Notes under the pieces: model-generated
What the model saw: the letters and a program-made list of their open reading frames with translations, nothing else
The model's database searches: none
What the model was told of the DNA's origin: nothing
Shown here: positions 42,901 to 56,459 of the stretch, piece after piece
Layout of the letters: every line of letters starts with the position of its first letter
Position numbering within the stretch: position 1 is the stretch's first letter
Assembly: GCA_948439405.1 (NCBI GenBank)
Contig: CAOJNB010000002.1
Location: forward strand, 62,001 to 126,000
Source of the DNA: an uncultured Coriobacteriaceae bacterium
Lineage (GTDB): Bacteria; Actinomycetota; Coriobacteriia; Coriobacteriales; Atopobiaceae
Direction of reading: 5' to 3'
Length of the DNA stretch: 64,000 bases
Made by a program: the position numbers and the translations under genes

Positions 42901-45598
42901 CGCCCTCCTGGATGGCCCAGCCGGTGCCGTTCTGGTCCGTGACGGGGTCGTCGGCCTCGGCGTCGGCGTCGACCTTCACGTAGGGCGCCTCGTCCTTGTC
43001 CACGACGCCCGTGGTGTCGAACGTGACGTCGGCGTAGTTCAGGGACGCGGAGTCCGCGGCCATGGTCTCCTCGGCGTAGTACGTGTACTCGCGGCCCAGG
43101 CTGTCATAGGCCGGCAGCCCGTTGATGGTGCAGGTCTGGCCGTAGAGGTCGGCCGCGAGGTCGGAGTCCCCGCCGCCCGCGCGCGTGGAGGCCTCCCACA
43201 GGTAGTCGACGTACCCGTCGACCACCTCGGGCGTGCCGCCGTCGACCGTGCGGTACAGGGTCAGGTAGATGTCCGGGCGCTGCCCGAGCTCCTCGTAGAC
43301 GTACTGGTCCTTCCACTCCTTGTGGAACTGGACGGACGTCGTGCCGGAGCGCGTGTTCGTGATTTCCCAGCTCTGCGTGTCGTGGAAGTGCAGTGCGGAG
43401 GTCTGGTAGTCGCCGACCTCGACGGAGTTATGGTAATCGCCCTGGTCGCCGACGAAGCTCTCCTCGACGGAGTAGGTCACCGAGTAGCCCTGCGCGTCGT
43501 ACTTGGGCAGGCCCGCGATCACGTAGGTGCCCTTCTCCTGCGTCGTGTCGACGGTGACGCGCAGCTCGCCGCCGGTCACCTGGACCTCGTCGGTGTTCAC
43601 GTTGTACTGGCGCGCGTCGTCGCCCGTGCCGTTGAGCACCGGCAGGCGGTTGCCGGAGACCTGGACCCACACGTTGCCGTCGCCGTCGACGCTGAAGGCG
43701 CTCACCGGTCCGTTCGCGCCCTCGCAATAGACGGTGAGCACGGCGTCGGGACGGATGCCGTCAGGGTCGGTGCCGAGCCCGTCGATCCACTCCTTCGTCA
43801 CGTCGAGGTCGATGATGCCGAGGCGGCGGTTGGTCACCTCGACCGAGCCCATCTCGTCGTTGCGGGTGGAGCGGACCTCGTAGACGTGCTGCGTGGTGGC
43901 CACGCGCTCGTTCTCGGGGTTGCTCCAGCCGACGTTGATCCACTCGACGTCGCCGTACTGGGCCCTGGCCTCGTCCATCGAGACGACCGGGTACACCTTG
44001 CCGTTCTCGACGACCGAGACCTCCTCGGCGTAGAAGTCGTCCTGGTCGAGGTTGCCGATGCCCACGCCGACCTCGGCGTACCAGGAGTTGGCGGCCGAGA
44101 GCTCGATGTTGGAGGCGACGAGCTGGCCCTCGCGGTACGAGACGCGCGGGTCCCCGTTCTCGTCGAGCGTCTGCGACTGCATGTCGTGCGCCGCGTACAG
44201 GTTCACGATGACGGACGGGCGGTGCACGTCGTCGTCGCCGTCGAGCCAGCGCTTCGTGATGCGGATCTCGGAGCTCTCGCCCTCGGCGATGTGGTTGTCG
44301 ATGCGCGTGGTCGCGGTGTCCGGGTCGTAGGTGCGCGTGGCGTACCAGCCGTCCTTCTGGGTCTCGAGGACGAGGTAGTTGTAGCGGGCGCCGGACTCGG
44401 AGTACTTCGGGAGCTCGAAGTCGATGTGGTAGGGGCTCGTCTCCTGGTAGGTCGCGCCCTCGAGGCCGGGGATCTCGGTCGGGGCGGCGTCGATCTCGCC
44501 GTCCATCTCGAAGGTACCGATCAGCTCGTTGTCGCGGAACAGCTGGATGCGGGCGATGCCGTCGTTGTCCACGTCGGCGTACTCCTCGCCCGTGAGGTCG
44601 GGCCTCACCTGGGCCATGCTGCCGTCGGGCTGCTCCCAGTACTTGTCGACGTGCTCCTCGGTGGTGTTCTGGAACGTGTTCGTGATCGTGGTCGTGCCGT
44701 CGTCGTTGACCGTCGGCGTCGAGACGAAGGAGAGCTGCTCCTGCTCGCCGGTGGTCGACGTCACCGTGAGCTCGAAGGAGGCGCTGCCGTCTTCGTTCTC
44801 GCGGAAGTTCGTGTCCTGGCCGCCGAACGCGACGCCCGTCTCGACCCAGCGGTACTCGAGCTCGTGGCCGTTCTCGTCGTAGCGGTCGAAGGTGCCCGAG
44901 AACTGCTTGGTGAGCGTCTCGGCGTGCCAGCCCGTCAGGGTGACGGTGCCGTCCGCGCCCCCGACGTCCTGCCACTCCTCGTCGCTGCCGGCGTGCCGCC
45001 ACTGCGCCGTGAAGGTGCACGTGACGTCGGTGAGGCTGTCCTGGAAGGCGCTGATGACCCACGTCTTTCGCCCCTCGACCGTCACTTGGCCGGTCCTGCG
45101 GTTCGTGACGGTGGCGCCGTTGTAGATGAAGCGGTCGTTGGAGGGACGGGTCGCCTGGCGGTCGTAGTAGACCGGGTCGTCGTTCGAGTCGAGGTAGTTC
45201 GGGCCCGTGTCGCCGGACACGGCGCCGTCAGCCCCGATCGTGCCGTAGACGATCTCGTAGCCCGAGACGGCGTCCTCGCGCAGCGCGTAGACGTAGGGGT
45301 AGCCGTCCGGGTCGTAGCGGTCGAGGAAGCGCTCGCCCTCGGCGATGCCGTACTTCTCGCGCAGCATCGCGTCGAGGTCGACGTTCGTGTCGGAGCCGGC
45401 AGGCAGCGTCAGGGTCACGAACTCCTCGCTACCCTCCTTGTTGACGAGGGTGGCCTGCGTCGCGGTCGCCGGGCTGCCGCCGTTGGTGGAGTAGCGCCAC
45501 AGCGTGTAGGTGACGGCCGGGCGCTGCGAGGCGTCCCCGTCGTCGGCCCACACCTTGTCGGCGGAGTAGGTCGTCAGGCCGCTGTGGCGCAGCGTCAT
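36953..45598 (-). CDS. Giant LPKTG-anchored Cna-B/SpaA-domain adhesin, downstream frame of a frameshifted gene
   Basis: This 2881-residue frame holds about a dozen Cna-B-like domains, each beginning like TKRWLDGDDDVHRPSV or SKTWVDGEDPYGLRPE. At least nine SpaA-like domains follow (for example AGATFDLYRSDGT, PGATFTVTPVDGTTFVGGG), two being near-duplicates at 37.8-38.1 and 38.5-38.7 kb. Lys and Glu/Asn positions fit self-forming isopeptide bonds. The C terminus is LPKTG (about residues 2848-2852), hydrophobic segment and RRKRG, for sortase anchoring. It has no signal peptide: its first ATG (45598) overlaps the stop of the upstream frame as ATGA. The two frames together encode one normal exported adhesin of about 3590 residues. 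Confidence 0.88.
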   Translation of the reverse strand: MTLRHSGLTTYSADKVWADDGDASQRPAVTYTLWRYSTNGGSPATATQATLVNKEGSEEFVTLTLPAGSDTNVDLDAMLREKYGIAEGERFLDRYDPDGYPYVYALREDAVSGYEIVYGTIGADGAVSGDTGPNYLDSNDDPVYYDRQATRPSNDRFIYNGATVTNRRTGQVTVEGRKTWVISAFQDSLTDVTCTFTAQWRHAGSDEEWQDVGGADGTVTLTGWHAETLTKQFSGTFDRYDENGHELEYRWVETGVAFGGQDTNFRENEDGSASFELTVTSTTGEQEQLSFVSTPTVNDDGTTTITNTFQNTTEEHVDKYWEQPDGSMAQVRPDLTGEEYADVDNDGIARIQLFRDNELIGTFEMDGEIDAAPTEIPGLEGATYQETSPYHIDFELPKYSESGARYNYLVLETQKDGWYATRTYDPDTATTRIDNHIAEGESSEIRITKRWLDGDDDVHRPSVIVNLYAAHDMQSQTLDENGDPRVSYREGQLVASNIELSAANSWYAEVGVGIGNLDQDDFYAEEVSVVENGKVYPVVSMDEARAQYGDVEWINVGWSNPENERVATTQHVYEVRSTRNDEMGSVEVTNRRLGIIDLDVTKEWIDGLGTDPDGIRPDAVLTVYCEGANGPVSAFSVDGDGNVWVQVSGNRLPVLNGTGDDARQYNVNTDEVQVTGGELRVTVDTTQEKGTYVIAGLPKYDAQGYSVTYSVEESFVGDQGDYHNSVEVGDYQTSALHFHDTQSWEITNTRSGTTSVQFHKEWKDQYVYEELGQRPDIYLTLYRTVDGGTPEVVDGYVDYLWEASTRAGGGDSDLAADLYGQTCTINGLPAYDSLGREYTYYAEETMAADSASLNYADVTFDTTGVVDKDEAPYVKVDADAEADDPVTDQNGTGWAIQEGGTFVNTLTSNVIANGTKVWEDVPGNVSQDDLPDVTVYIQQRVKGDTSWEPMTATRQADGSWKVDGYVAETSTLTEVTTNQYSYHVEYKGDNDSLPANPEPLPRFTEDGRLYEYRAVEVVWGLEGVEGAGFPTGDSFQITDGSDDQHDVSGNIYVVQHGEAGSFILRNVYQAPTGQLTVKKAFSGRDAGDAYPDVTYRLYRYYEHDGQRSESALVEARTITAEQFAAADSGDGNAEATCTFDDLEMLAPSGDPWVYYVTEEPLGGGYETTVGMGDLEVGSDQLKASAETDEGIPSGTMSDDVVAKNDDVVDVTFANDYDEGNCDLSGTKRWNDYGNVFGTRPDEIGITLSRSAGPMTEQVELQSDDPDGANYLSWVKDADAGSWSFTIENVEEWAPNGQRWEYTVTETLPSGYESSYVVTRGTSSATAGTSDSLSLVNSLKGGLTASKTWVDGEDPYGLRPETVEVTVQARVEGSDDPWQDAYGFLKAHAAAGTTDDDTAAAGFTPDSFVATLDYYHGWQAEWNGLPLTVKSASGQVVSVEYRVVETKIGDQEITPPTASESADANIYTTYGPYQPSQETTEKDDAWSTVVTNTLDSTSVSATKTWAADVDDAWGTRPTDGGTWTVTYFLQRRLAETDTEAAGPWEWVVEAGAEPADSAIDDGVVSLTISDTDGTETATWKDLPETDTQGRTYEYRVVEQVPGGYDVQGATQVPDADTAHRYFVVSGSSTGAVQTFTNEMRTVDLTGTKLWSDDAPELVPDFDSGTRPTMVLWRSVEGGDPEKVTYDGGSPAQPTWTEVSEGEWTFTYENLPAADHDDKPYTYWAVEQDGTVPGFHPVYATEGADGTQVAGDQQTGTEITNEPNRLTLSKVSDVAGDDAPRDVELTVLSPDGSRTYAVWTVDEDGTTSARVWAAGTDDPSDATGSVETDGEIWGLRAGTYVIRETSNPPEGFALAEDVTITVAADGSVTSTTQGAVSGSVADGTINVEVEDPVFRGHFEITKTVTNDEGETSPLAGATFDLYRSDGTKVAEGITIGADGTWSSEDADDVTFLTEEDGHRTTLADGLLPGEYYLVETNSTPGAVLPPSTTHYEFEIEADVAGQPTHHQKVVEVDVENEAFEADVVLMKYDATPGAGNAGIDGAEFTLYWTPEGSSTEQELGTYTTETVDGKAGTLVLPDLQKGSYRLVESANPGYDIEGERGFEATFVLGNEDEGQTFRIPADASKIDFQALASGSGIYDPGVPNWRETGSVTLEKLGGLGDDTEPLDGVTFDLQRLDGGEWVTVVEDLQTGRNYEMNEANTGVGRPTRGDSGQLRVTGLQWGTYRLVESGTLEGYVGQDGQGWLVSDQFTIDRHNLDHTLTGDDAVVNVPTRLVIHKENEDGVALRNTTFTVTPVDGSTFVGGGTGPVEIRTGRDGNASLVGQLLVGGTYAIEETDAPNDYDPVEGTLTVKVAADGTLEVQGEMPEGYARLDGNGYSFSVTNEFVCITISKVDSTDGHGLEGVLFVMRTDGAGPKNYTTGPDGTITIDRTLTQGHTYTLEEMQTIDGYLRVMGSMEFTIGEDGEIDVVGELPAGYEVSEDGVAITVQNEPTGLELLKVDPDGNALPGATFTVTPVDGTTFVGGGTEPVTITTGADGLATMRAQLMVGGTYDITESDAPEGYLAAEGTMRVYVAADGTLQSQGSVVDGQVVGNLPPTGYTKVDSNRFQVQVTNEPIVIGLAKVDAEDTSVALAGATFEVEGRFAGASGVETRSYTTDETGRLDMSAELAAGETYALTETVAPAGYELAEGTVEFTVQEDGTIVAAADLPAAYAIEQGNLTIVALDEPLRASIVKQGEDGGALSGAEFTVEGPFPNGDASRTFTSSSDGTVVDGVQLTGSAEGTRYTVTETRAPEGYEAIPAFDVLVFDDGTVRIADDAPAAARESFSVADEDGTAVITLVDSLEPDLFGWLPKTGEQLLPYGIVAAIAAVLVVAGLLRSRRKRG

Positions 45599-45612
45599 CG
45601 TGCCGCGGAGTA
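45595..45612 (-). other. Apparent one-base frameshift within the adhesin gene
   Basis: On the minus strand the upstream frame runs to YSAAR and stops at TGA (45597-45595), while the next domain (TMTLRHSGLTTYSADKVWADDG) continues in the -1 frame. Reading GCGGGCACG instead of GCGGCACG would join them seamlessly, so loss of one G is the simplest explanation. It could be a real mutation, a sequencing error, or a slippage site. Confidence 0.8.
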
Positions 45613-47715
45613 GACGGCGTTGGTCGATGACCCGTGGTTCGGCGCCGCGGAGTTGTCGTAGGTGGCCTGGTAGTAGTCGCTGCCGGTCTGGGCGCCCGTG
45701 TAGGCGATCGAGTAGACGATGGGCTTGTTGTGCTGGTCGTAGCGCGGAAGGCGCCCGCTGATGACGGCGCCGGTGTCGGTGAGCTCGAGCTTGAGGTCGC
45801 CGCTCGCGATGAGGTCCCTCAGGGAGGGCGGCTGCTCCTGGATGACGCCGTCGATCGTGGCGGACACCATGAAGGCGTCCTCGGGCAGGCTCGCGAGGAG
45901 CTCCGGGAAGTCGTCGTCGCCGATCTTGGCCACGATGTCGAACTGGAGGTCGTAGGTCAGCAGCTGGTAGACGACGAGGCTGCCGTCCTCGGCGTAGCCG
46001 GAGCCCGTGCCGCGGAAGTAGCCGTCGATCTGCCCGTCGCCCTTGGCGCCCGTCCTGTCGGCGAGGCGCCAGGAGACGGACACCTGGGAGCCGGCCACGG
46101 TCTCCGTCTTGGTGAGCACGTTGCCGTCCACGTCGTAGACGGGCTTCGTGACCTCGTTGCCCTGGGCGTCGACGTAGTAGGTCCGCTGCGTCTCCACGTT
46201 CGTGGGCAGCCCGCCCGTGGTGATCGAGTAGACGTTGCCGGCCGCGCTCCCGCTCACGAGGGGGGTCGGCAGCTGGTCCTGGGTGAGGTGCAGCAGCTCG
46301 GAGGCCTTCTGCGTGAGGTTGCCGTCGGCGTCCACGAGGTCGTACCAGGTCGTGCCGTCGACCGTGAACTGCGGCATCATGCCGGCCACGATCGAGTCGA
46401 GCGAGGGGCGAGACGCGGAGTTGTTGTCGCCCCACGTGATTGAGCCCTTCGCGTGCTCGACGAAGTCGGTGGCGACGGTCACGGTGCCGACGCCGTCCGT
46501 GTTGAGGGCGAGCATGCCCGCGGCGAGGACCGCGTTCGCGACCTGCTCGTCCGTCATGCCCTCGGTGCCGGCGAGCTCCTCCTCGCCGTCCTGGCCCTCG
46601 TCCTCGGGCATGGCGACGCCGAGGGTCGCGGCGACGTCCGCCGCGGAGGGGATGGCGAGCGTGGCCGTCTGGGCGGTGCCGTCGGCGCCGGTCTGCAGGG
46701 TCCAGGAGACCTGGGAGGCCTCCTCGCCGAAGGCGGAGGCGTCGACGCGCACACCGAGGTCGACGCTCGCCTCGAGCGTCGCGAGGACGGGGGTCTCGGA
46801 GCCCTTGGCGACCTCGCCCACGGCGTAGGAGGTGCCGGTGGCCGTGTCGACGGGGGCCTGGAACTCGATGACGAGCGAGCCGCCCTGGACGCGGGCGGTG
46901 CCGATCCTGGTCGAGGTGGCGGTGCCGTCCTCGGCGCGCTGCCAGACGTCGACGGTCGCGCCCTCCTCGGCGGTGACGCCCTCGGGCAGGGGCACCGTCA
47001 CGGTGTCGCCCGCGATGACGGAGGCGTACAGGGTGCCGTCGAGGGAGGTCGACGCCGTCGGGTCGAGGCTCAGGGTGAGGTTCAGGGTCGCGGGGACGCC
47101 GTCGGCGAGCGCGGAGCCGATCAGCTGGGCGAGCGGGGCGTCGGGGTCCTCGTCGAGCGCGGTCTGCAGCGCGGAGGCGGCCGCCTCGTCGGCGGCGAAG
47201 GTCAGCCCCTCGCTCGCGAGCTCGAGGGCGTCCGTGTCGCCCTCCCAGGCGCGCGGCGCGGTGCGCTCGGCCTTCGTCTCGGCCTCGGGGGTGGCGGGGG
47301 TGCCGGGGGTCTCGGTCTCGGGGGCGGGGGTGGTCCCCTCGTCCGAGGCGCCGCCGGTCGCGGGGGTCGCGGTCTGCGACGGGGTCGTCGACTCGGGCGT
47401 CGTCGACGGGTCGGCGGTCGTCGTCGACGCGTCGGTCGTCGGCGTCGTAGACGGGTCGGGCGTCGTGGGCTCCTGCGGCGTCACGACGGTCGTCGCGCCG
47501 TCGCCGTCCTGGGTCCCGTCGCCCGTGACGGGCGTCGTCTGCTGGCCCGTGTCGCCGACGGCCGCGTAGACGAGCCCCGTGCTCATCGCCGTCGAGAGCA
47601 CGAGGACGAGGACGAGCAGGGCGCGGGCGACGCGCGGCATGAGCTCGCGCGCGGCGCGCCTGACCCTCCTCGAAACGCGGCGGGCCTTCGTTCCGTTCGA
47701 CATGAAGCGCTTCAT
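45595..47715 (-). CDS. Giant adhesin, upstream frame with signal peptide
   Basis: The 706-residue product has a long basic N-terminal region (MKRFMSNGTKARRVSRRVRR) and a hydrophobic segment (ARALLVLVLVLSTAMSTGLVYA), a typical extended signal peptide. A Thr/Ser/Pro-rich stalk (residues about 55-150) and an adhesin head of about 550 residues follow. The head includes AVYSAAR at its end, where the frame breaks and the Cna-B domains continue in another frame. Alone it lacks a cell-wall anchor and would be secreted or lost. The ATG at 47715 is preceded by a nine-G tract in place of a normal ribosome-binding site; a TATAGT -10-like box lies at about 47796-47801. Confidence 0.82.
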   Translation of the reverse strand: MKRFMSNGTKARRVSRRVRRAARELMPRVARALLVLVLVLSTAMSTGLVYAAVGDTGQQTTPVTGDGTQDGDGATTVVTPQEPTTPDPSTTPTTDASTTTADPSTTPESTTPSQTATPATGGASDEGTTPAPETETPGTPATPEAETKAERTAPRAWEGDTDALELASEGLTFAADEAAASALQTALDEDPDAPLAQLIGSALADGVPATLNLTLSLDPTASTSLDGTLYASVIAGDTVTVPLPEGVTAEEGATVDVWQRAEDGTATSTRIGTARVQGGSLVIEFQAPVDTATGTSYAVGEVAKGSETPVLATLEASVDLGVRVDASAFGEEASQVSWTLQTGADGTAQTATLAIPSAADVAATLGVAMPEDEGQDGEEELAGTEGMTDEQVANAVLAAGMLALNTDGVGTVTVATDFVEHAKGSITWGDNNSASRPSLDSIVAGMMPQFTVDGTTWYDLVDADGNLTQKASELLHLTQDQLPTPLVSGSAAGNVYSITTGGLPTNVETQRTYYVDAQGNEVTKPVYDVDGNVLTKTETVAGSQVSVSWRLADRTGAKGDGQIDGYFRGTGSGYAEDGSLVVYQLLTYDLQFDIVAKIGDDDFPELLASLPEDAFMVSATIDGVIQEQPPSLRDLIASGDLKLELTDTGAVISGRLPRYDQHNKPIVYSIAYTGAQTGSDYYQATYDNSAAPNHGSSTNAVYSAAR

Positions 47716-47722
47716 CGAGCTA

Positions 47723-47731
47723 CCCCCCCCC
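47723..47731. repeat. Nine-base C (G) tract in the adhesin ribosome-binding region
   Basis: On the minus strand G9 lies 8 bases before the adhesin ATG, where the Shine-Dalgarno sequence belongs, with no other GGAGG-like motif nearby. Changes in tract length would change the strength or spacing of the site, or shift any reading frame that starts upstream. Confidence 0.7.
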
Positions 47732-47864
47732 AGCCGTTTTCGACTGCGTCGGCAGGCGCACCGTCGATGCACGGTTGAGGTCCGTTTGATGTGCGACTAT
47801 ACCCACCGGGACGCGCCAGCCCCGGCAAGGGGATACAACTGTTCGCTCATGCTAACAGAAGGCT

Positions 47865-47918: not shown

Positions 47919-48731
47919 CTAGCGGCCCCGGGCCTCCCGCGCCTCCGCGGCGATCCTGGCCATCTCGGCCTGCACCGCGTGCTCCGCGTTGGTGCCCAGC
48001 ACCCGCTCCGCGAACGAGCGCAGCACGTAGCAGGCGTTCGCCATCGCGAAGGGGTGGCCCACGTAGCGCAGCATCTCGTAGTCGTTCATCGAGTCGCCGT
48101 AGGCGGCCATGTCCTCGGCGCGGATCTTCAGCCTGCGCCCGATCGTGCGCAGGCCGGAGGCCTTCGAGACGCCGCGCGGCATCACGTCGATGCAGTCGGG
48201 GCTGTAGGGCAGGAAGGTCAGCTCGTCGCCGAGCTCGCTGGTGAGCGAGAAGATGATGTCGGTCGTCTCCTCGGCGCGGTCCACCGGAATCACGATCTTG
48301 AAGATCTCGTCGTCGGGGACCTCGCTCACGTTGCGCTCGTACTCGCCCTCCTCGCCCGGGGGAGGCCCGAACGGGGGCCGCCAGTTCAGCTCGGTCACGT
48401 AGCGGTGCTCCGCGCCGTGCAGCATGAGGTGGGCACAGGAGATGCGGTCGCAGAACTCCTTGAGCCGGCACACGACGTCGTGGTCGAAGGTGAGGTCCTC
48501 GAGCACGCGTCCGTCGCAGACGACCTGGGTCCCGTTCGAGGCCACGTAGTCGATCTCGTCCGCGTAGTCGCCCCAGAAGGCGCGCAGCGTGTCGTGGCGG
48601 CGCCCGGAGCTCACCACGAAGCGGACGCCCGCGTCGCGCAGCTCGTCGATGAGCCCGTAGGTCTCCGGGGGAATCCGCGAGTCCTCGTCCAGCAGCGTGC
48701 CGTCCATGTCCACCGCGACGAGCCTGATCAT
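47919..48731 (-). CDS. Cof-type HAD-IIB phosphatase, eighth (last) of the tandem array
   Basis: A 270-residue haloacid-dehalogenase-type phosphatase. Motif I is VAVDMDGTLLD (Asp8 nucleophile, Asp10 acid/base), motif II VVSSGR (Ser41-Ser42), motif III the lysine in GVSKASGL and motif IV AYGDSMNDYEML. A C2B cap domain (residues about 85-185) determines the substrate, probably a sugar phosphate or phosphorylated cofactor. Its ATG overlaps the stop of the preceding HAD gene by 4 nt. The cap is the most distinct of the series around WRPPFGPPPGEEGEYER. Confidence 0.9.
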   Translation of the reverse strand: MIRLVAVDMDGTLLDEDSRIPPETYGLIDELRDAGVRFVVSSGRRHDTLRAFWGDYADEIDYVASNGTQVVCDGRVLEDLTFDHDVVCRLKEFCDRISCAHLMLHGAEHRYVTELNWRPPFGPPPGEEGEYERNVSEVPDDEIFKIVIPVDRAEETTDIIFSLTSELGDELTFLPYSPDCIDVMPRGVSKASGLRTIGRRLKIRAEDMAAYGDSMNDYEMLRYVGHPFAMANACYVLRSFAERVLGTNAEHAVQAEMARIAAEAREARGR

Positions 48732-49543
48732 GGCCGCTCCCCCGCCTCGATGCGGTCCAGCAGGCGGCGCAGGTCGCACTGGACGCCGTGCTCCTCGTTC
48801 GTCTCGATCACGCGCTCGGCGACCTGCCTCACGCCGTAGAGGCCGTTGCCCATCACCACGGGGTGGCCCACGTAGCGCAGGATGTCGTAGTCGTTCATCG
48901 AGTCGCCGTACATCATCACCTCGTCGGGCGTCAGCAGGTAGTGGCGGATCACCTTGCGGATGCCGCTCGACTTGGAGACGTGCTTGGGCATGTAGTCGAT
49001 GCCGCGGCTGCCCGTCCACGCGAACGTCCAGATGTCACCGAGCTCGACGCCCAGGGCGTAGACGATGTCGGGGACGACGGAGACGTCCTCGCTCAGGATC
49101 ACGCCGTTGAAGATCGCGGCCTCGGGCCCGGGGACCTTGTTGAGGTACACGTCGTTGTCCGGGCCGGGGCGCCGCGGCAGGCGCTCGAACTTCTGCGGCG
49201 GGTCGAAGCAGTAGGCCACGTCGCCGGCGCGCGCGAGCAGGTGCAGGCAGTCGAACTGGTTGACCACCTCGCCCAGGGCGAGCAGGGCCTCGTGGCTGTA
49301 GAGCTCGCGGGAGATGAGCCTCCCGTCCACGTAGACCTCGGCGCCGTTGGAGCAGACGAAGTCCATCTCGTCCGCGATGGGCGCGAACACGTCCGCGAGC
49401 TCCGCGAAGCGCCTCCCCGAGCTCGCCGCGAAGTGGATGCCGTGGCGGCGCAGCTCGTGGACGAGCTCGAAGGTCTCGGCGGGGACGTGGAGGGGCCGGT
49501 CGAAGAGCGTCCCGTCCATGTCGGTCGCGATCAGCTTGATCAT
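48728..49543 (-). CDS. Cof-type HAD-IIB phosphatase, seventh of the array
   Basis: A 271-residue paralogue with motif I IATDMDGTLFD (Asp8, Asp10), motif II AASSGR, motif III HVSKSSGI, motif IV MYGDSMNDYDIL. The cap contains FDPPQKFERLPRRPGPDNDVYL. It ends EHGVQCDLRRLLDRIEAG, the C-terminal helix shared by all members. Both ends overlap the neighbouring HAD genes by 4 nt (ATGA), so translation is coupled. A catalytic set is complete. Substrate unknown. Confidence 0.9.
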   Translation of the reverse strand: MIKLIATDMDGTLFDRPLHVPAETFELVHELRRHGIHFAASSGRRFAELADVFAPIADEMDFVCSNGAEVYVDGRLISRELYSHEALLALGEVVNQFDCLHLLARAGDVAYCFDPPQKFERLPRRPGPDNDVYLNKVPGPEAAIFNGVILSEDVSVVPDIVYALGVELGDIWTFAWTGSRGIDYMPKHVSKSSGIRKVIRHYLLTPDEVMMYGDSMNDYDILRYVGHPVVMGNGLYGVRQVAERVIETNEEHGVQCDLRRLLDRIEAGERP

Positions 49544-50403
49544 GCACGCGCCCCCTCGCTCGCGTCGAACGCGGGGACGCCGCTCCCGCCGGCGCGGATG
49601 TCGTCGATCACGCGGCGCAGGTCGCGCTGGACGCCGTGCTCCAGGTTGGACTCGACCACGCGCTCCGAGACCTGCTTCGGCGGGTAGAAGGCGTTCGCGA
49701 CGACCGTGGGGTGCCCCACCTCGCGCAGGATCTCGTAGTCGTTCATCGAGTCGCCGTAGGCCATGACCTCGTCCGCGGAGAGCCCGTAGTGCGCCATCAC
49801 CTTCGCGATGCCGGTGGCCTTGGTGATCCCCTTCGTCGAGAAGTCCATCCCGACGTTCGTGTAGTTGAACGTGAACAGGTCGCCGAGCTCGAGGTTGAGC
49901 ACGTAGGCGAAGTCCTGGATCTCGTGCGGCAGCTCGGTGATGAACCAGCCAGTCGTCACCCGCTCGCCCGGGCGCGGCACGCGGCGCTGGGCGTGGACGA
50001 GGTCGCCGTCGTTGCGGGTCTCGAGCAGCGGGAGCAGGCGGTCGAACTTCTCCTGCGTGTCGTCGCAGCACAGGATCCCCTCCTCGGAGGCGAGGAAGAG
50101 GTGGTGCGCGTCGAACAGGTTCGTCACCTCCGCCACGCGGCGCACGGCCTCGACCGAGTAGAACTCCTCCTGCAGGCACTCGCCCGCCACGTAGACCTCG
50201 GCGCCGTTCGCGCACACGTAGTCCATCTCGTCGGCGACGGGCGCGAAGTTGTCCAGCAGCAGCGGGTGGTCGCGCCCCGAGCTCACGCAGAAGCGCACGC
50301 CGACCTCCGCGAGCTCGCGGATGAGGCCGAAGGTCTCGGGCGGGACGAGCCCCTCGCCGTCGAGCAGCGTGCCGTCCATGTCGCAGGCGATCAGCTTGAT
50401 CAT
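49540..50403 (-). CDS. Cof-type HAD-IIB phosphatase, sixth of the array
   Basis: A 287-residue paralogue. Motifs: IACDMDGTLLD, CVSSGRDH, ITKATGIAKV (lysine) and AYGDSMNDYEIL. The cap includes EEGILCCDDTQEKFDRLLP with a pair of cysteines not present in all paralogues, and FTFNYTNVGMDF. A 15-residue tail after RAGG (VPAFDASEGARA) is unique to this copy. ATGA overlap at both ends. Confidence 0.9.
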   Translation of the reverse strand: MIKLIACDMDGTLLDGEGLVPPETFGLIRELAEVGVRFCVSSGRDHPLLLDNFAPVADEMDYVCANGAEVYVAGECLQEEFYSVEAVRRVAEVTNLFDAHHLFLASEEGILCCDDTQEKFDRLLPLLETRNDGDLVHAQRRVPRPGERVTTGWFITELPHEIQDFAYVLNLELGDLFTFNYTNVGMDFSTKGITKATGIAKVMAHYGLSADEVMAYGDSMNDYEILREVGHPTVVANAFYPPKQVSERVVESNLEHGVQRDLRRVIDDIRAGGSGVPAFDASEGARA

Positions 50404-51290
50404 GCGGTCCCTCCCGAGCTCGCGACGGAGCCCGAGCCCGTCCCGATGGCCGTGGGCGGCAGGGTGAAGTCGACGAGCCCGTCGCCGCCCGCACGGATGT
50501 CGTCGATGATGCGGCGCATGTCGCGCTGGACGCCGTGCTCGAGGTTCGTCTCGATCACGCGCTCGGCGATCTGGTAGGCGCCGTAGAGCGCGTTTCCCAC
50601 CACGACGGGATGGCCCACGTAGCGCAGCATGTCGTAGTCGTTCATCGCGTCGCCGTAGGCGACGGCCTCGTCGCGGCGGATCCCGTGGTGGCGCAGGACC
50701 TTGCGCAGGCCCGTCGCCTTGTTCACCGTCTTCGGGGTGAAGTCGATCGCCACCATGCCGGTGCGCTGGAACACGAAGCGGTCGCCCATCTCCATGTTGA
50801 GCACGTAGGCGAGGTCCACGATCTGCTCGGGGTCGCTGCACACGCATACGCCGAGGATGAGCTCGGAGCCAGGCGGCGGGGTCCCCGGGGTGTAGGTGGT
50901 CCAGCCGCCGTGCACCTCGAGGAAGCGGGCGTACTTGTCCGGGTCGTCGTCCAGGCAGTACGACGTCTCCTCGGTCGCGCAGGTGAGGTGCAGGCAGTCG
51001 AACTGGTTCACCACGTCGGCGAGCTGCATGAGGTCGTCGCGGGAGAAGAACTCCTTGTCGACGAGCTCGTCGCCCACGTAGATGGAGGTGCCGTTGGAGG
51101 CGACGTAGTCGATCTTGTCGGCGACGGGGGCGAACAGCTCCTGGAGCGTGCCGACGCGCCTGCCCGAGCTCACGCAGAAGCGGACCCCCAGGTCGTACAG
51201 CTCCTCGATGAGCCCGATCGTCTCCTCGGGCAGCCGCGAGCTGGACTCGAGCAGCGTCCCGTCCATGTCACAGGCGATGAACCTGATCAC
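50400..51290 (-). CDS. Cof-type HAD-IIB phosphatase, fifth of the array
   Basis: The longest member at 296 residues, starting with GTG. Motifs are IACDMDGTLLE, CVSSGRRVG, TVNKATGLRKV and AYGDAMNDYDML (Ser of GDSMND replaced by Ala, as in paralogue three of this array). The cap has HLTCATEETSYCLDDDPDKYARFLEV. A tail rich in Gly and Ser (TAIGTGSGSVASSGGTA) follows the common RAGGDGL helix. GTGA and ATGA overlaps link it to its neighbours. Confidence 0.9.
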   Translation of the reverse strand: MIRFIACDMDGTLLESSSRLPEETIGLIEELYDLGVRFCVSSGRRVGTLQELFAPVADKIDYVASNGTSIYVGDELVDKEFFSRDDLMQLADVVNQFDCLHLTCATEETSYCLDDDPDKYARFLEVHGGWTTYTPGTPPPGSELILGVCVCSDPEQIVDLAYVLNMEMGDRFVFQRTGMVAIDFTPKTVNKATGLRKVLRHHGIRRDEAVAYGDAMNDYDMLRYVGHPVVVGNALYGAYQIAERVIETNLEHGVQRDMRRIIDDIRAGGDGLVDFTLPPTAIGTGSGSVASSGGTA

Positions 51291-52129
51291 GCGAGGCCTC
51301 CCGTCCCCCCGAGCCCGTCGCCGCCGGCGCGGATGTCGTCGAGCATCCGCCGCATGTCGCGCTGCACGCCGTGGTCGACGTTCGAGGCGATGACGCGCTC
51401 GGCGAGCTCCTTGATCTGGTCGTACGCGTTCTCGACCGCCGTGGGGTGCCCCGCGTGGTCGAAGAGGAACTGGTCGTTCATCGAGTCGCCGTAGGCGACG
51501 ACCTCGTCGGCGGCCACGCCCCTGGCCTCCATCACGAGCTGGAGCCCCGTGGCCTTCGAGACGCCGCGCGGCACGACGTCCAGCACGGGCTTCTCGAGCG
51601 CCAGGAAGTGGAAGACGTCGCCCATCTCGGCCTCGAGCTCGTCGGCCGCGGCGAGGACGTCGGTGTCCGCGGGGCAGAACAGCGCGCAGGCGACCATGTC
51701 GACCCCCTCGGGGGGCGGGCCCTCGAGCACGCGGCGGGCCGACCAGCCCCACTCCGCGCGCTCGGACTCGGTGACGGCGCCGTCCACGACGTACTCGCGC
51801 CCGTCGCTGCCCACCGCGTTCAGGTGGAAGCCGGGGTGGCGGGCGGCCGCGAGCGCGGCGAGGCGCCCCACCTCCCCCGCGTCGTAGGGATGGCGGGCGA
51901 GGACCTCGCCGCCCGCGGAGACGAAGGTCCCGTTGGCGCACACGAGGTCGACGCAGTCCGCGATCGGCTCCACGAGCCTGCGCACGAACGAGGCGGCGCG
52001 CCCCGAGCACACGCAGAAGCCCACGCCCACCTCGGCGAGCTCGCGGACGAGCCCGTACGTCTCGGGCGGGACCTGGCTGCGCTCGTCGAGCAGCGTGCCG
52101 TCCATGTCGGTCGCGACGAGCCTGATCAC
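51287..52129 (-). CDS. Cof-type HAD-IIB phosphatase, fourth of the array
   Basis: A 280-residue paralogue with GTG start. Motifs are VATDMDGTLLD, CVCSGRAAS (Cys before Ser), GVSKATGLQLV and AYGDSMNDQFLF. The cap is more diverged (AAARHPGFHLNAVGSDGREYVVDG, then CALFCPADTDVLAAADELEAEMGDVFHF) than in the fifth to seventh copies. The C-terminal helix HGVQRDMRRMLDDIRAGGDG matches the others. Coupled to both neighbours by 4-nt GTGA overlaps. Confidence 0.9.
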   Translation of the reverse strand: MIRLVATDMDGTLLDERSQVPPETYGLVRELAEVGVGFCVCSGRAASFVRRLVEPIADCVDLVCANGTFVSAGGEVLARHPYDAGEVGRLAALAAARHPGFHLNAVGSDGREYVVDGAVTESERAEWGWSARRVLEGPPPEGVDMVACALFCPADTDVLAAADELEAEMGDVFHFLALEKPVLDVVPRGVSKATGLQLVMEARGVAADEVVAYGDSMNDQFLFDHAGHPTAVENAYDQIKELAERVIASNVDHGVQRDMRRMLDDIRAGGDGLGGTGGLA

Positions 52130-52968
52130 GCCGGGGCCTCCCCCGTGCCGAGCCCGTCGCCGCCGGCGCGGAGGTCGGCGAGGATGCGGGCCATGTCGCG
52201 CTGGACGCCGTGCTCGGCGTTGGTCTCCACGACCCGCTCCGCGAGGGCCTTGAGCTCGTCGAGCGCGTTGCCGACGGCGCGCGGGTGGCCGGCGCAGGCG
52301 AACAGGTCACAGTCGTTCATCGCGTCGCCGTAGGCCACGACCTCGTCGCGGGAGAGCCCGTGCGCCTCGAGCACGCGGGAGAGCCCGGTGCGCTTGGAGA
52401 CGCCCTTCGGCGTCGCGTCCACGATGGGGACGCCCAGACGGTGGAAGTCGAACACGTCGCCCATCGCGTCGTTGAGGAAGGCCTCCGCCTCGGAGAGGTC
52501 CGCCTGCACGGAGGAGAACATCTCGCAGGACAGCACCCCCACGTCCGCCGGCGGCGGGCCGATCAGGGTGGTGTGCTCGGGCCAGGCCCGGAAGAAGGCG
52601 TCGACGTCGTCGTCCGTGCGCGTCACGAGGTGGTAGTTGCCGTCCGTCCCGCCGAGGCAGGGGTGCAGCATCGGGTAGCGCTCGAACACGATGCCGAAGA
52701 GCTCGTCGAGCGCCGCGCGGTCGAAGGTGTCGCGCACGAGCGGCTCGCCGGCCACGGTCACGTGGGTGCCGTTGGCGCACACCATGTCGATCTCGTCGAG
52801 CACGGACTCCACGAGCGGCAGAGCGGAGTGGGGCGGACGCCCCGAGCACACGCAGAAGCGCACGCCGACCTCCGCCAGCTCGCGGATGAGGTCGAAGGTC
52901 TCCGGCGGGACGCGGCTCTCCTCGTCGAGCAGCGTGCCGTCCAGGTCCGTCGCGACGAGCCGGATCAC
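52126..52968 (-). CDS. Cof-type HAD-IIB phosphatase, third of the array
   Basis: A 280-residue paralogue with a GTG start. Motif I is VATDLDGTLLD (Leu instead of Met between the two aspartates); motif II CVCSGRPPH, motif III GVSKRTGLSRV, motif IV AYGDAMNDCDLF. Like the fourth copy it has the VCSGR and MVCANGTHV pattern, so the two probably arose from a recent duplication. The cap (FERYPMLHPCLGGTDGNYHLV) differs. 4-nt overlaps on both sides. Confidence 0.9.
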   Translation of the reverse strand: MIRLVATDLDGTLLDEESRVPPETFDLIRELAEVGVRFCVCSGRPPHSALPLVESVLDEIDMVCANGTHVTVAGEPLVRDTFDRAALDELFGIVFERYPMLHPCLGGTDGNYHLVTRTDDDVDAFFRAWPEHTTLIGPPPADVGVLSCEMFSSVQADLSEAEAFLNDAMGDVFDFHRLGVPIVDATPKGVSKRTGLSRVLEAHGLSRDEVVAYGDAMNDCDLFACAGHPRAVGNALDELKALAERVVETNAEHGVQRDMARILADLRAGGDGLGTGEAPA

Positions 52969-53816
52969 GACTTGGCCCCGAAGCGCAGCGTCTTGCTCCC
53001 GTCGCCGCCGGCGCGCATCTCCTCGAGCAGGCGCTTCATGTCGCGCTGGACGCCGCGCTCGAGGTTCGACTCGATGATGCGGGTCGCGACCTGCTTGGGC
53101 GCGTACAGCGCGTTCGCCATGGCCGTGGGGTGGCCGACGATGCGGAAGATGTCGTAGTCGTTCATCGAGTCGCCGTAGGCGATGGCCTCCTCGGGATACA
53201 CGTCGTAGTGCTCGAGCACCTGCTGGATGCCCGTGGCCTTGTTCACGTGCGCCGGCATGAAGTCGATGGACTGCCCGTCGGTGGGCGCGAAGGTGAAGTC
53301 GCGGCCCATCTCGAGGTTGAGCAGGTAGGCGATGTCCATGATCGACTCGTCGGAGTCGCAGGCCACGCTCGCGGTGAGGATGTTGGTGGTGGGGGGCGGC
53401 ACGGCGGGGGTCGGGTAGAAGTTCCACTGCCGCCCGACGGTGCGCCGGAAGCGCAGCGCCTTGGCCGGGCTGTCCAGCAGGAAGGGCTGGTCGTGCTCGT
53501 CGTGCACCGTCACGTGCAGGGAGTCGAAGCCCTCGCACAGGTCGCGCAGGCGCATGAGCGCCTCGTAGCTGAACAGCTCGCGGTCGGTCGTGACGCCCTC
53601 GATGACGACGTGGCAGCCGTTGGAGCAGACGAAGTCCATCTCGTGGGCGACGGGGCGGAACAGCTCGTAGAGGAACAGGTAGGGACGGCCGGAGCTCACG
53701 ACGAAGCGCACGCCCTCGGTCCACAGGTCGTGGATGAGCTCGAAGGTGCCCTCGGGCACCTGGCTGTTCTCGTCGAGCAGGGTGCCGTCCATGTCGGAGG
53801 CGATCAGTCGGATCAT
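52965..53816 (-). CDS. Cof-type HAD-IIB phosphatase, second of the array
   Basis: A 283-residue paralogue with an ATG start directly adjacent to the stop of the first copy. Motifs are IASDMDGTLLD, VVSSGRPYL, HVNKATGIQQV and AYGDSMNDYDIF. The cap has DSLHVTVHDEHDQPFLLDSPAKALRFRRTV. The extra tail SKTLRFGAKS follows the common RAGGDG end. It overlaps the third copy by 4 nt. Confidence 0.9.
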   Translation of the reverse strand: MIRLIASDMDGTLLDENSQVPEGTFELIHDLWTEGVRFVVSSGRPYLFLYELFRPVAHEMDFVCSNGCHVVIEGVTTDRELFSYEALMRLRDLCEGFDSLHVTVHDEHDQPFLLDSPAKALRFRRTVGRQWNFYPTPAVPPPTTNILTASVACDSDESIMDIAYLLNLEMGRDFTFAPTDGQSIDFMPAHVNKATGIQQVLEHYDVYPEEAIAYGDSMNDYDIFRIVGHPTAMANALYAPKQVATRIIESNLERGVQRDMKRLLEEMRAGGDGSKTLRFGAKS

Positions 53817-54617
53817 CTAGCCCTCCAGACCCTCGAGGACGCGCCGCATCTCCTGCTGGACGCTGTGGTCCTTGTTCGACCCGATGATGCGCTCCGAGAT
53901 CTGCTTGACGGCGTAGCGCGCGTTCTCCATCGCGACCGGGTGCCCCACCAGGCGCAGGATCTCGTAGTCGTTCATCGAGTCGCCGAAGGCCATGACCTCG
54001 TCGGGGACGATGCCGTAGTGGTCCATGACCTGCTGGATGCCGGTGGCCTTGGAGACGTAGCGCGGCATGACGTCGATCCAGCGGACGTCGGAGGGGGCGA
54101 AGCGGAACGAGTCGCCCAGCTCGCGGTCGAGCGCGTAGGCCATGTCCATGAGGTAGTCGGCGTCGTCGCAGTAGATCGAGCCCTTGAGGATGTTGACCTC
54201 GGGACCGGGCACCACGTTCACGCGGACCTCGTTGCGCAGGTCCTTGTCGAGCGCGCGCTCGAACTTGTCGAGGTCGTCGAGCAGGTAGGAGCGCGTGCGG
54301 TCGTTGACCATGAGGTGCAGGCAGTCGAACATCTGCACGACGCGCTCGAGCTTCATGACCGCCTTGTGGGAGTAGATCTCGCGGTCGATCATCTGGCCCT
54401 GGACGTAGACCTGGCAGCCGTTGGAGGCGACGAAGTCCATGTCCTCGATGACCGGCTCGAAGAACTCGCACAGCGTGTCGTAGCGCCGCCCCGAGGTGAC
54501 GACGAAGTTGACGCCCCTCTCCTTGAGGGCGCGGATGAGGTCGAACGTCTCGGGCGGCACCTTGCTGTCCTCGTCGAGCAGGGTTCCGTCCATGTCGGAG
54601 CAGATCAGCTTAATCAT
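53817..54617 (-). CDS. Cof-type HAD-IIB phosphatase, first of the array
   Basis: The promoter-proximal paralogue, 266 residues and the shortest. Motifs are ICSDMDGTLLD, VVTSGRRYD, YVSKATGIQQV and AFGDSMNDYEIL (Phe for Tyr). The cap has MVNDRTRSYLLDDLDKFERALDKDL. It lacks the glycine-rich tail of the others and ends RRVLEGLEG. Its ATG has GGGAGGG 12 bases upstream, and the region before it holds a 16-bp palindrome shared with the divergent EIIA gene. It stops one base before the second copy begins. Confidence 0.9.
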   Translation of the reverse strand: MIKLICSDMDGTLLDEDSKVPPETFDLIRALKERGVNFVVTSGRRYDTLCEFFEPVIEDMDFVASNGCQVYVQGQMIDREIYSHKAVMKLERVVQMFDCLHLMVNDRTRSYLLDDLDKFERALDKDLRNEVRVNVVPGPEVNILKGSIYCDDADYLMDMAYALDRELGDSFRFAPSDVRWIDVMPRYVSKATGIQQVMDHYGIVPDEVMAFGDSMNDYEILRLVGHPVAMENARYAVKQISERIIGSNKDHSVQQEMRRVLEGLEG

Positions 54618-54657
54618 GATGCGTCGCGTCCCTCCCGCTGGTCCCTATGACAATGCA

Positions 54658-54673
54658 ATACCAGTACTAGTAT
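54658..54673. promoter_or_regulatory. GntR-type palindromic operator between HAD operon and EIIA gene
   Basis: ATACCAGTACTAGTAT is a near-perfect 16-bp palindrome (15 of 16 positions when arms are compared, one mismatch pair). The ATAC-xx-GT/AC-xx-GTAT form resembles operators of GntR/HutC-type sugar regulators. It lies midway in the 100-bp divergent region, in the AT-rich part likely to hold both promoters. No regulator gene is adjacent. Confidence 0.5.
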
Positions 54674-54717
54674 CCCACTGAAATACCCCACGCCGACCAC
54701 CCACATCGAGGAGCGAG

Positions 54718-55215
54718 ATGCGCACGAGCCGCCACGTGATCGCGAGCCCCGTCTCGGGCACGGGCGTCCCCCTCGAGGAGGTTGACGACGCGGTCCTCTC
54801 CTCCGGCGTGCTCGGCGAGGGATGGGCCGTCGAGCCGCGCGACGGGACGGTGCTCGCCCCGATTGACGGCGTGGTCACCCGGATGGCCCGCACCAAGCAC
54901 GCCTTCTGCATGCGCGGCGACGACGGGACCGAGGTCCTCGTCCACATCGGCATCGACACCGTCCGGCTCGGGGGCGCCCCCTTCGAGGCCCTCGCGCACG
55001 AGGGCGACCGGCTGCCGACGGGAGGGCCGGTCCTCTCCGCCGACCTCGACGAGATTCGCGGGGCGGGGCTCTCCGCCCTCACCGCCGTGATCGTGTGCGG
55101 CGACGAGGACGAGCGCGTCGACGTGGTCGCAGCCCCCGGCGGCGACGTGCGCGCCGGCCGGCCGCTGATCGAGGTGCGCCGCGCCGCCGAGGGCGGCCGG
55201 GGGCGGGGCCACTAG
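54718..55215 (+). CDS. PTS glucose-type EIIA component, stand-alone
   Basis: A 165-residue EIIA of the glucose superfamily, a phosphocarrier between HPr and a sugar permease. The domain hallmarks are SPVSGTGVPLEEVDD and, at the active site, VLVHIGIDTVRLGG with the phosphorylated histidine. It is a free-standing component like Crr and has no permease gene beside it, so it must serve a permease elsewhere or act as a regulator. It follows GAGGAGCGAG and diverges from the HAD array. Its stop overlaps that of pepT by 4 nt, tail to tail. Confidence 0.88.
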   Translation: MRTSRHVIASPVSGTGVPLEEVDDAVLSSGVLGEGWAVEPRDGTVLAPIDGVVTRMARTKHAFCMRGDDGTEVLVHIGIDTVRLGGAPFEALAHEGDRLPTGGPVLSADLDEIRGAGLSALTAVIVCGDEDERVDVVAAPGGDVRAGRPLIEVRRAAEGGRGRGH

Positions 55216-56459
55216 GCCCCCTGCGGCACGGCGAAGCGCGCCACGAGGCGCTCCAGCATGTCCACCTGCAGCTCGAGCGCCCTCACCGGGACGAACTCGC
55301 GCACCGAGTGGAAGCACAGCCCGCCGGTCCCGAGGTTGGGGCAGGGCAGCCCGCGCTCGGAGAGCTGGGAGCCGTCCGTGCCGCCGCGCACCGGGCGCAC
55401 CACCGGCTCCACGCCGACGTCGTGGCAGGCCGCGAGCGCGTTGTCGACGAGGAACATGCGGCCGGAGAGCGCGGACGCCATGTTGCGGTACTGGTCGCGC
55501 ACCTCGACCTCGACGCGCGCCGTCGGGTGGGCCGCGCGCACGGCGTCCGCCGCGCGCCCGAGCGCCGCCTTGCGGCCCGCGAGCACCTCGTCGTCGAAGT
55601 CGCGCAGGATGTAGCGGGCGCGCACGCAGCCGTCGTCGCCCTGGACCGACAGGCAGTGGAAGAAGCCCTCGCGGCCCTCGGCCAGCTCGGGGCGCTCGCC
55701 GGCGGGCAGCGCGGCGTCGAACTCGCGGAACAACGAGGTCGCGTTCACCATGACGCCCTTCGCCGCGCCTGGGTGCGTCTGCACGCCGCGCAGCGTGACC
55801 GTGGCCTCCGCGGCGCTGAAGGTCTCCCAGGAGACCTCCCCGACCTCGTTGCCGTCGACGGTGTAGGCCCACGCGGCGCCGAAGGCGTCGAGGTCGAGCA
55901 GGGCGGCGCCGTGGCCGATCTCCTCGTCCGGGACGAAGGCCACCCTGAGCGCGGGGTGCGGGAGCGAGGGGTCGGCGACGAGGCGGGCGAGCAGCGCGCA
56001 GATCCCCGCGACGCCGGCCTTGTCGTCGGCGCCGAGCAGGGTGGTGCCGTCGCTGCAGATCAGGTCCTCGCCGACCAGGTCGTCGAGCTGCGGGCACTCG
56101 GCGGGCGAGACGGAGACGGGCCGGCCCCCGGGCGCGCCCACGACGAGGTCGCCTCCCTCGTAGCGCACCACGTGCGGCCGGACGGGGCCTCCCGGCACGC
56201 CGGGGACGGTGTCGACGTGGGCGATGAGCCCGAGCGCGGGCAGGTCGCACGCCTGCGGCGAGGCGGGAAGCGACGCCGTCACGTAGGCGTGCCCGTCGCG
56301 CCGGACGTCCTCGAGGCCCAGCTCCAGGAGCTCGCGCTCGAGCAGGCGCGCCATGTCGTGCTGCTCGGGGGTGGACGGGGTCCCTCCCTCCCCCGCCTCC
56401 GAGTCCGAGCTCGACGGGACCTGCACGTACCTCAGGAATCGCTCGACGACGTCCGACAT
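55212..56459 (-). CDS. pepT: Peptidase T (tripeptide aminopeptidase)
   Basis: The 415-residue zinc peptidase of the M20 family removes N-terminal residues from tripeptides in the cytoplasm. Metal and catalytic residues are in IAHVDTVPG, LGADDKAGVAG (two-metal bridging Asp), PDEEIGHGA (catalytic Glu and metal Glu) and the VDGNEVG strand. The PepT signatures RPVRGGTDGSQLSERGLPCPNLGTGG and SVREFVPVRALE near the C terminus are clear. ATG with GGGAGCGGCC upstream. Length and motifs are complete. Confidence 0.93.
   Translation of the reverse strand: MSDVVERFLRYVQVPSSSDSEAGEGGTPSTPEQHDMARLLERELLELGLEDVRRDGHAYVTASLPASPQACDLPALGLIAHVDTVPGVPGGPVRPHVVRYEGGDLVVGAPGGRPVSVSPAECPQLDDLVGEDLICSDGTTLLGADDKAGVAGICALLARLVADPSLPHPALRVAFVPDEEIGHGAALLDLDAFGAAWAYTVDGNEVGEVSWETFSAAEATVTLRGVQTHPGAAKGVMVNATSLFREFDAALPAGERPELAEGREGFFHCLSVQGDDGCVRARYILRDFDDEVLAGRKAALGRAADAVRAAHPTARVEVEVRDQYRNMASALSGRMFLVDNALAACHDVGVEPVVRPVRGGTDGSQLSERGLPCPNLGTGGLCFHSVREFVPVRALELQVDMLERLVARFAVPQGA

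What the first reader, a model, noticed from the sequence alone, without database searches (positions are those of the whole stretch)
47919..54617. Eight tandem Cof-type HAD phosphatase genes in one operon
Eight paralogues of about 270-296 residues follow head to tail, with 4-nt or zero overlaps, all with complete catalytic motifs but different caps. Such dense tandem arrays are unusual: one or two Cof genes is the norm. The third and fourth copies share VCSGR, and the third and fifth GDAMND, showing duplication and exchange. The caps probably define different phosphate esters. It is a natural set for mapping specificity divergence.
Basis: partly seen in the sequence, partly recalled or inferred. 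Interest (0 to 1): 0.7.

Follow-up and report, generated by a model that had tools for sequence, protein, structure and literature searches.

The report
Eight-gene phosphatase array with diverged caps
In one bacterial genus, a single sugar-phosphatase-like gene that relatives keep as one copy was copied in place into a row of up to eight genes whose chemical core stayed the same while the substrate-reading cap changed in each copy, giving a natural, readable experiment in how enzymes may gain new targets.

Summary
Eight intact Cof-type HAD-IIB (C2B-cap) phosphatase genes, 266-296 aa, lie head to tail on the minus strand at 47919-54617; one pair abuts, six pairs overlap by 4 nt; all have complete catalytic motifs. 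They arose in place. Across the family and the class Coriobacteriia the same subfamily is a single gene, often beside pepT. Only the window's genus holds an array: eight copies here and five orthologous ones (C1, C2, C5, C6, C7) in the one other species held, whose contigs overlap by 87 bp inside C5. C1 is the conserved ancestral copy; C2-C7 are derived; C3/C4 are a further duplication; C8's origin is unresolved. The caps, not the cores, diverged: at equal core divergence, single-copy caps keep about 50% identity, array caps 20-34%. The cap/core rate ratio is 1.15 on single-copy and 2.70 on paralogue branches, highest before the two species split; orthologous caps are then conserved (55-78%). 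This supports duplication followed by cap-led divergence of specificity. Substrates are unknown; sugar phosphates are the best guess.

The parts
53817..54617 (-). C1, Cof-type HAD-IIB phosphatase; conserved ancestral copy, orthologue of the single gene of other Coriobacteriia
   Evidence: 52-65% identical to named single-copy genes; keeps 44/46 core and 16/18 cap columns conserved in single copies; orthologue in G001 82%
52965..53816 (-). C2, derived paralogue; orthologue in G001
   Evidence: 67%, cap 55%
52126..52968 (-). C3, derived paralogue, sister of C4; no orthologue in G001
   Evidence: AlphaFold model pLDDT 92.4
51287..52129 (-). C4, derived paralogue, sister of C3; one of the fastest-changing caps
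50400..51290 (-). C5, derived paralogue (GDAMND motif IV); orthologue in G001 spans the contig break there
   Evidence: 67%
49540..50403 (-). C6, derived paralogue; orthologue in G001
   Evidence: 65%
48728..49543 (-). C7, derived paralogue; orthologue in G001, where it is the last gene of the array
   Evidence: 75%
47919..48731 (-). C8, strongly diverged member, no orthologue found; nearer to single copies of other genera (51%) than to its neighbours
54618..54717 (.). Divergent intergenic region, presumed promoter of the array and of the PTS EIIA gene; holds a 16-bp near-palindrome ATACCAGTACTAGTAT at 54658-54673, the only match in this genome and absent from G001
   Evidence: no sigma-70 consensus match found
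54718..55215 (+). Stand-alone PTS EIIA (glucose type, PF00358), divergent neighbour kept in both species of the genus
55212..56459 (-). M20 peptidase (pepT-like), marker of the ancestral neighbourhood of the single-copy gene across the family

Best explanation
A single Coriobacteriia HAD-IIB phosphatase gene (fold and sequence nearest E. coli YbiV/SupH), lying beside pepT, was duplicated repeatedly in place in one genus of what is most likely Atopobiaceae. The first gene, C1, kept the old sequence and probably the old activity. C2-C7, and probably C8, kept the hydrolytic core (nucleophile D8, acid/base D10, S42, K190, Mg-binding D213/D217) while their C2B caps changed quickly, mostly before the two sampled species split, and were then held by selection. 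The eight genes look like one co-translated operon that supplies a panel of phosphatases with different substrate preferences, most likely for sugar phosphates or related small phosphate esters. Shown by sequence: in-place expansion in this genus, orthology between two species, intact catalytic residues, cap-led divergence. Inferred: co-transcription, different substrates, the link to sugar phosphates and PTS uptake.
For: One copy in nearly all relatives that have the subfamily: 67 of 140 family genomes and 110 of 298 class genomes carry it; two genomes have two, on different contigs; only the window's genus has an array. Same place beside the M20 peptidase as in relatives. Five one-to-one orthologous pairs, and C2-C7 one clade (100/99). 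G001 contigs overlap by 87 bp exactly within C5, giving C1-C2-C5-C6-C7. Cap versus core: paralogue caps 14-41%, orthologue caps 55-78%; at core identity 45-60%, single-copy caps about 50% with 1-2 gap columns, array caps 20-32% with 8-20; cap/core rate ratio 1.15 single copies, 1.34 C1, 2.70 paralogues, 3.30 before and 1.64 after the species split, ratio of ratios 2.35, 95% 1.74-3.07. Cap positions fixed in single copies (E122, K125, K145, R165, P175, S176) change in C2-C7, often to the same new residue in both species (K145: C2 T/T, C5 L/L, C6 T/T, C7 N/N; P175: C5 R/R, C6 Y/Y, C7 W/W). Two confident models with the C2B fold, nearest YbiV/SupH. In a related Cof enzyme, changing cap residue 126 shifts the preference among hexose 6-phosphates (PMC9226320).
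Against: No activity or expression data. HAD phosphatases are often promiscuous, so cap change need not mean distinct substrates. C8 does not clearly belong to the same duplication (p-AU 0.064 for all array rows as one clade). The sister assembly is fragmented (230 contigs, 80% complete), so its count of five assumes the simplest join. Cap branch lengths of C3, C4 and C8 are long and near saturation, and the branch resampling treats branches as independent. The PTS link rests on neighbours only; the sorbose-type PTS is next to the array in G001 but not here.
Confidence: 0.7

Rival explanations
1. Relaxed constraint: C1 does the work and the other copies drift, with caps loosening because they are less needed.
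For: Caps change faster than cores in the derived copies; dN/dS of C2, C5 and C6 is higher than that of C1.
Against: All eight frames and all catalytic residues are intact; junctions keep 4-nt overlaps; orthologous caps are 55-78% identical while paralogous ones are 14-41%; new cap residues are shared by both species; cap acceleration falls after the split (3.30 to 1.64); orthologues are as conserved (65-75%) as the neighbours EIIA 59%, M20 63% and esterase 70%.
Confidence: 0.15
2. Dosage array: more copies mean more of one broad phosphatase, for example against sugar-phosphate overload; cap differences are incidental.
For: A single operon-like unit next to a PTS gene; known relatives of the fold are sugar phosphatases.
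Against: Dosage arrays should stay similar; these are about 34-51% identical and caps diverge beyond the core expectation.
Confidence: 0.1
3. Mixed origin: part of the row, above all C8, came by transfer from another Coriobacteriia lineage and joined a smaller in-place array. This is compatible with the main explanation for C1-C7.
For: C8 is 51% identical to single copies of other genera but 42% to C1, has no orthologue in G001, sits outside C2-C7 in the rooted tree (99/88), and keeps K145, which C2-C7 lost.
Against: Its branch is long; the all-array clade is not rejected (p-AU 0.064); a tree without outgroups joins C8 to C2-C7.
Confidence: 0.35
4. Assembly artefact: one gene wrongly repeated.
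For: The window's genome is a 34-contig, 87%-complete assembly.
Against: The copies are highly diverged, lie inside a long contig (109.9-116.6 kb of C2), and five have orthologues in the same order in another genome.
Confidence: 0.01

Closest known systems
E. coli YbiV/SupH (PDB 1RLM, 2HF2), a HAD-IIB sugar phosphatase
   Same: Best match by profile (1.5e-62) and at the top by fold (TM 0.91 for C1): same C2B architecture and motifs
   Different: Only 25-26% identical; not a tandem row in E. coli (own knowledge); cap residues of C2-C8 differ
Single-copy Cof gene of Coriobacteriia (Collinsella, Olsenella, Atopobium, Gordonibacter, Ellagibacter)
   Same: C1 is its orthologue (52-65% identity), and in the family it often lies near the same M20 peptidase gene
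   Different: One gene, not a row; caps conserved at about 56% on average across genera
Tandem Cof pairs
   Same: Many relatives have a second, distant Cof gene (cofB) next to the single copy, and some Firmicutes have pairs
   Different: Pairs of old, distant paralogues (cofB is a separate clade, 100/100), not a one-lineage row of eight
Thermotoga TM0651-type sugar phosphatases (PDB 1NF2; Ts38HM6PP)
   Same: Same HAD-IIB fold; cap residues shown by mutation to set sugar preference (PMC9226320)
   Different: Single enzymes with engineered, not natural, cap variation; residue-by-residue match to this array not established here

Membership tests
HAD-IIB / Cof-type hydrolase (PF08282, TIGR01484, TIGR00099) | Profile match | tested here: met
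   PF08282 and TIGR01484 above curated cut-offs for all eight; TIGR00099 best-scoring for all but above its cut-off only for C1, C3, C8
HAD-IIB / Cof-type hydrolase (PF08282, TIGR01484, TIGR00099) | Four catalytic motifs: DxDGT, S/T, K, GDxxND | tested here: met
   Invariant columns in all eight
HAD-IIB / Cof-type hydrolase (PF08282, TIGR01484, TIGR00099) | C2B cap between motifs II and III on a Rossmann-like core | tested here: met
   Models of C1 and C3 match C2B HAD structures (TM up to 0.91 and 0.89); the other six by alignment only
HAD-IIB / Cof-type hydrolase (PF08282, TIGR01484, TIGR00099) | Mg-dependent phosphatase activity | not testable with these tools
   No assay
YbiV/SupH sugar phosphatase | Activity on sugar phosphates | not testable with these tools
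   Nearest solved relative only, about 25% identity
Named equivalogs (YidA-type sugar-phosphatase, YigL, HMP-PP phosphatase Cof, YcsE-related, pyridoxal phosphatase) | Score above the curated equivalog cut-off | tested here: not met
   About 45-94 bits against cut-offs of 220-386
Concertedly evolving (homogenised) array | Near-identical copies kept alike by conversion | tested here: not met
   About 34-51% identity and saturated fourfold sites; only short tracts, clear in G001 alone

The most novel reading that the evidence does not exclude
The array is a genus-specific, operon-encoded panel of eight phosphatases with different, selected substrate preferences, made by repeated in-place duplication and a burst of cap remodelling on a fixed catalytic core: neofunctionalisation with its founder copy and its derived copies still in gene order.
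Probability: 0.5. Interest if true: 0.65.

Novelty: new variant of a known kind. Interest (0 to 1): 0.52.

Why it matters
HAD phosphatases are a leading example of a superfamily that diversifies by changing the cap while the core stays fixed, but this is usually inferred between distant proteins. Here the conserved descendant of one ancestor and up to seven derived caps sit in one operon-like row, with a second species to separate the burst from later constraint and single-copy relatives as controls. The question of which cap changes set specificity becomes directly testable with one gene-synthesis and substrate-screening set.

Tried and rejected
Third-position and fourfold-site identity gave no dating because all pairs are saturated. 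dN/dS by NG86 is used only as a relative measure, since extreme G+C at third positions makes dS unreliable; the ATP-grasp control in that run was misaligned and is ignored. The sigma-70 and terminator scan found nothing. The palindrome in the divergent promoter region is unique in the genome and absent in G001, so no regulon could be defined. Paper searches found no report of a long tandem array of Cof genes; the library is incomplete. No exact residue alignment to TM0651 was obtained, so its mutated cap residue was not mapped onto the array; the PfHAD1 structure paper was not held.

Full report
OBSERVATION. C1 and C2 abut; the other junctions overlap by 4 nt. All are HAD-IIB/Cof proteins and the catalytic residues D8, D10, S42, K190, D213 and D217 are invariant. 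Starts of C3-C5 are GTG and were set by the N-terminal motif.

RARITY. Cof genes as such are not rare: this genome has 15-17 PF08282 matches and the complete family members sampled have 4-22. The row is what stands out. In 100 other fetched loci, the longest same-strand run of Cof genes outside this genus is two (one apparent run of three is an ORF split by the search). Those loci come from searches for this subfamily, so this is a sample and not a census of bacteria.

ORIGIN IN PLACE. With the eight-gene profile, 67 of 140 family genomes carry the subfamily; 63 have exactly one copy, two have two copies on different contigs, and only the two genomes of the window's genus have more. Of 298 genomes of the class, 110 carry it, and besides the window's only one has more than one. 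A contig of 79650 bp and an identical protein link G100 to an 'uncultured Atopobiaceae' record, so the family is most likely Atopobiaceae. In many family members the order is M20 peptidase (pepT-like), a distant second Cof gene (cofB), then the single copy; in the window's genus it is pepT, a stand-alone PTS EIIA and the array. The array therefore sits at the ancestral place of the single gene.

SISTER SPECIES. G001, the other species of the genus held, has array pieces at the ends of two contigs. They overlap by 87 identical bases inside the orthologue of C5, so the simplest reading is C1-C2-C5-C6-C7, five genes, without C3, C4 and C8. The break itself may mean a repeat or strain variation, and the assembly is 80% complete, so more copies cannot be excluded. 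The upstream neighbours (EIIA, pepT, ATP-grasp gene, esterase, serC) are shared; downstream G001 has plsY, a DeoR regulator and a sorbose-type PTS, while the window has a large surface protein.

TREE. IQ-TREE with a mixture model gives: C1 with its G001 orthologue, beside the single copies (92/91); C2-C7 one clade (100/99); one-to-one pairs for C1, C2, C5, C6 and C7; C3 and C4 sisters (100/99), a further duplication that is either absent from G001 or lost there; cofB a separate clade. C8 is a long branch outside; a single clade of all array rows is not rejected (p-AU 0.064), and a tree without outgroups joins C8 to C2-C7. C8's best matches are single copies of other genera at 51%, against 42% to C1. 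Its origin stays open.

CAPS. Paralogue cores are 44-64% identical and caps 14-41%; orthologue caps are 55-78%. The control is the set of single-copy genes: at core identity 45-50, 50-55, 55-60 and 60-65% their caps average 50, 50, 51 and 51%, while array caps average 20, 24, 32 and 34% with many more gap columns. Of 18 cap columns conserved in at least 95% of single copies, C1 keeps 16 and C2-C8 keep 5-11; of 46 core columns C1 keeps 44 and the others 32-41. On a fixed tree the cap/core branch-length ratio is 1.15 for single copies, 1.34 for C1 and 2.70 for paralogues (ratio of ratios 2.35, 95% 1.74-3.07 by resampling branches), and 3.30 before against 1.64 after the species split. Residues fixed in single copies, such as K145 and P175, change in the derived copies, often to the same residue in both species. 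Together this fits divergence of function followed by constraint better than drift.

STRUCTURE. AlphaFold models of C1 (pLDDT 93.8) and C3 (92.4) are confident; both match C2B HAD phosphatases, with E. coli YbiV/SupH at the top. The cap region at about 113-129 is a loop of lower confidence in C1 and holds a helix (120-126) in C3. Profile search of solved structures also ranks YbiV/SupH first. None of the named equivalog models is reached, so no substrate can be assigned by family.

EXCHANGE. A permutation test on runs of shared variable sites finds one strong tract, 72 identical bases near the 3' ends of C5 and C6 in G001. In the window only C4/C8 and C3/C6 pass correction, with short runs. 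VCSGR (C3, C4) is explained by descent; GDAMND (C3, C5) is not evidence of exchange.

WORKING MODEL AND LIMITS. The likeliest picture is a co-translated panel of phosphatases, C1 with the old activity and the rest with shifted preferences. Published mutagenesis on a related Cof enzyme shows that cap residues set the preference among hexose phosphates (PMC9226320). That the substrates are sugar phosphates is inferred from the nearest solved relatives and the neighbouring PTS genes. Co-transcription, activity and specificity were not tested.

Noticed in passing
window 36953-47772, minus strand: A very large LPxTG-type surface protein (ends LPKTG, hydrophobic stretch, basic tail) is read in two frames: the N-terminal 725-aa ORF stops at 45595 and the rest continues in another frame inside the 36953-46435 ORF. 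A sequence error, a broken gene or two genes are all possible; the N-terminal part has no Pfam match.
   Followed up: partly
window 54658-54673: A 16-bp near-palindrome ATACCAGTACTAGTAT between the array and the divergent EIIA gene; only match in the genome with up to 2 mismatches and absent from G001. Possibly a local operator.
   Followed up: partly
L090 and L092 (G112, G100): Two genomes of another genus carry a second, non-tandem copy of the subfamily on a different contig; the two second copies are sisters (100/100), an independent duplication or a transfer.
   Followed up: no
L005, L006, L007, L011, L015, L018, L027, L089, L091, L093, L094, L095, L099, L100: A distant second Cof gene (cofB, own clade) lies directly beside the single copy, mostly just after pepT, in many relatives of the family but is missing at the locus in the window's genus; a paired function is possible.
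   Followed up: no
L082 2183-5900: In the sister species the array is followed by plsY, a DeoR-type regulator and a sorbose/mannose-type PTS, not found at this place in the window.
   Followed up: partly
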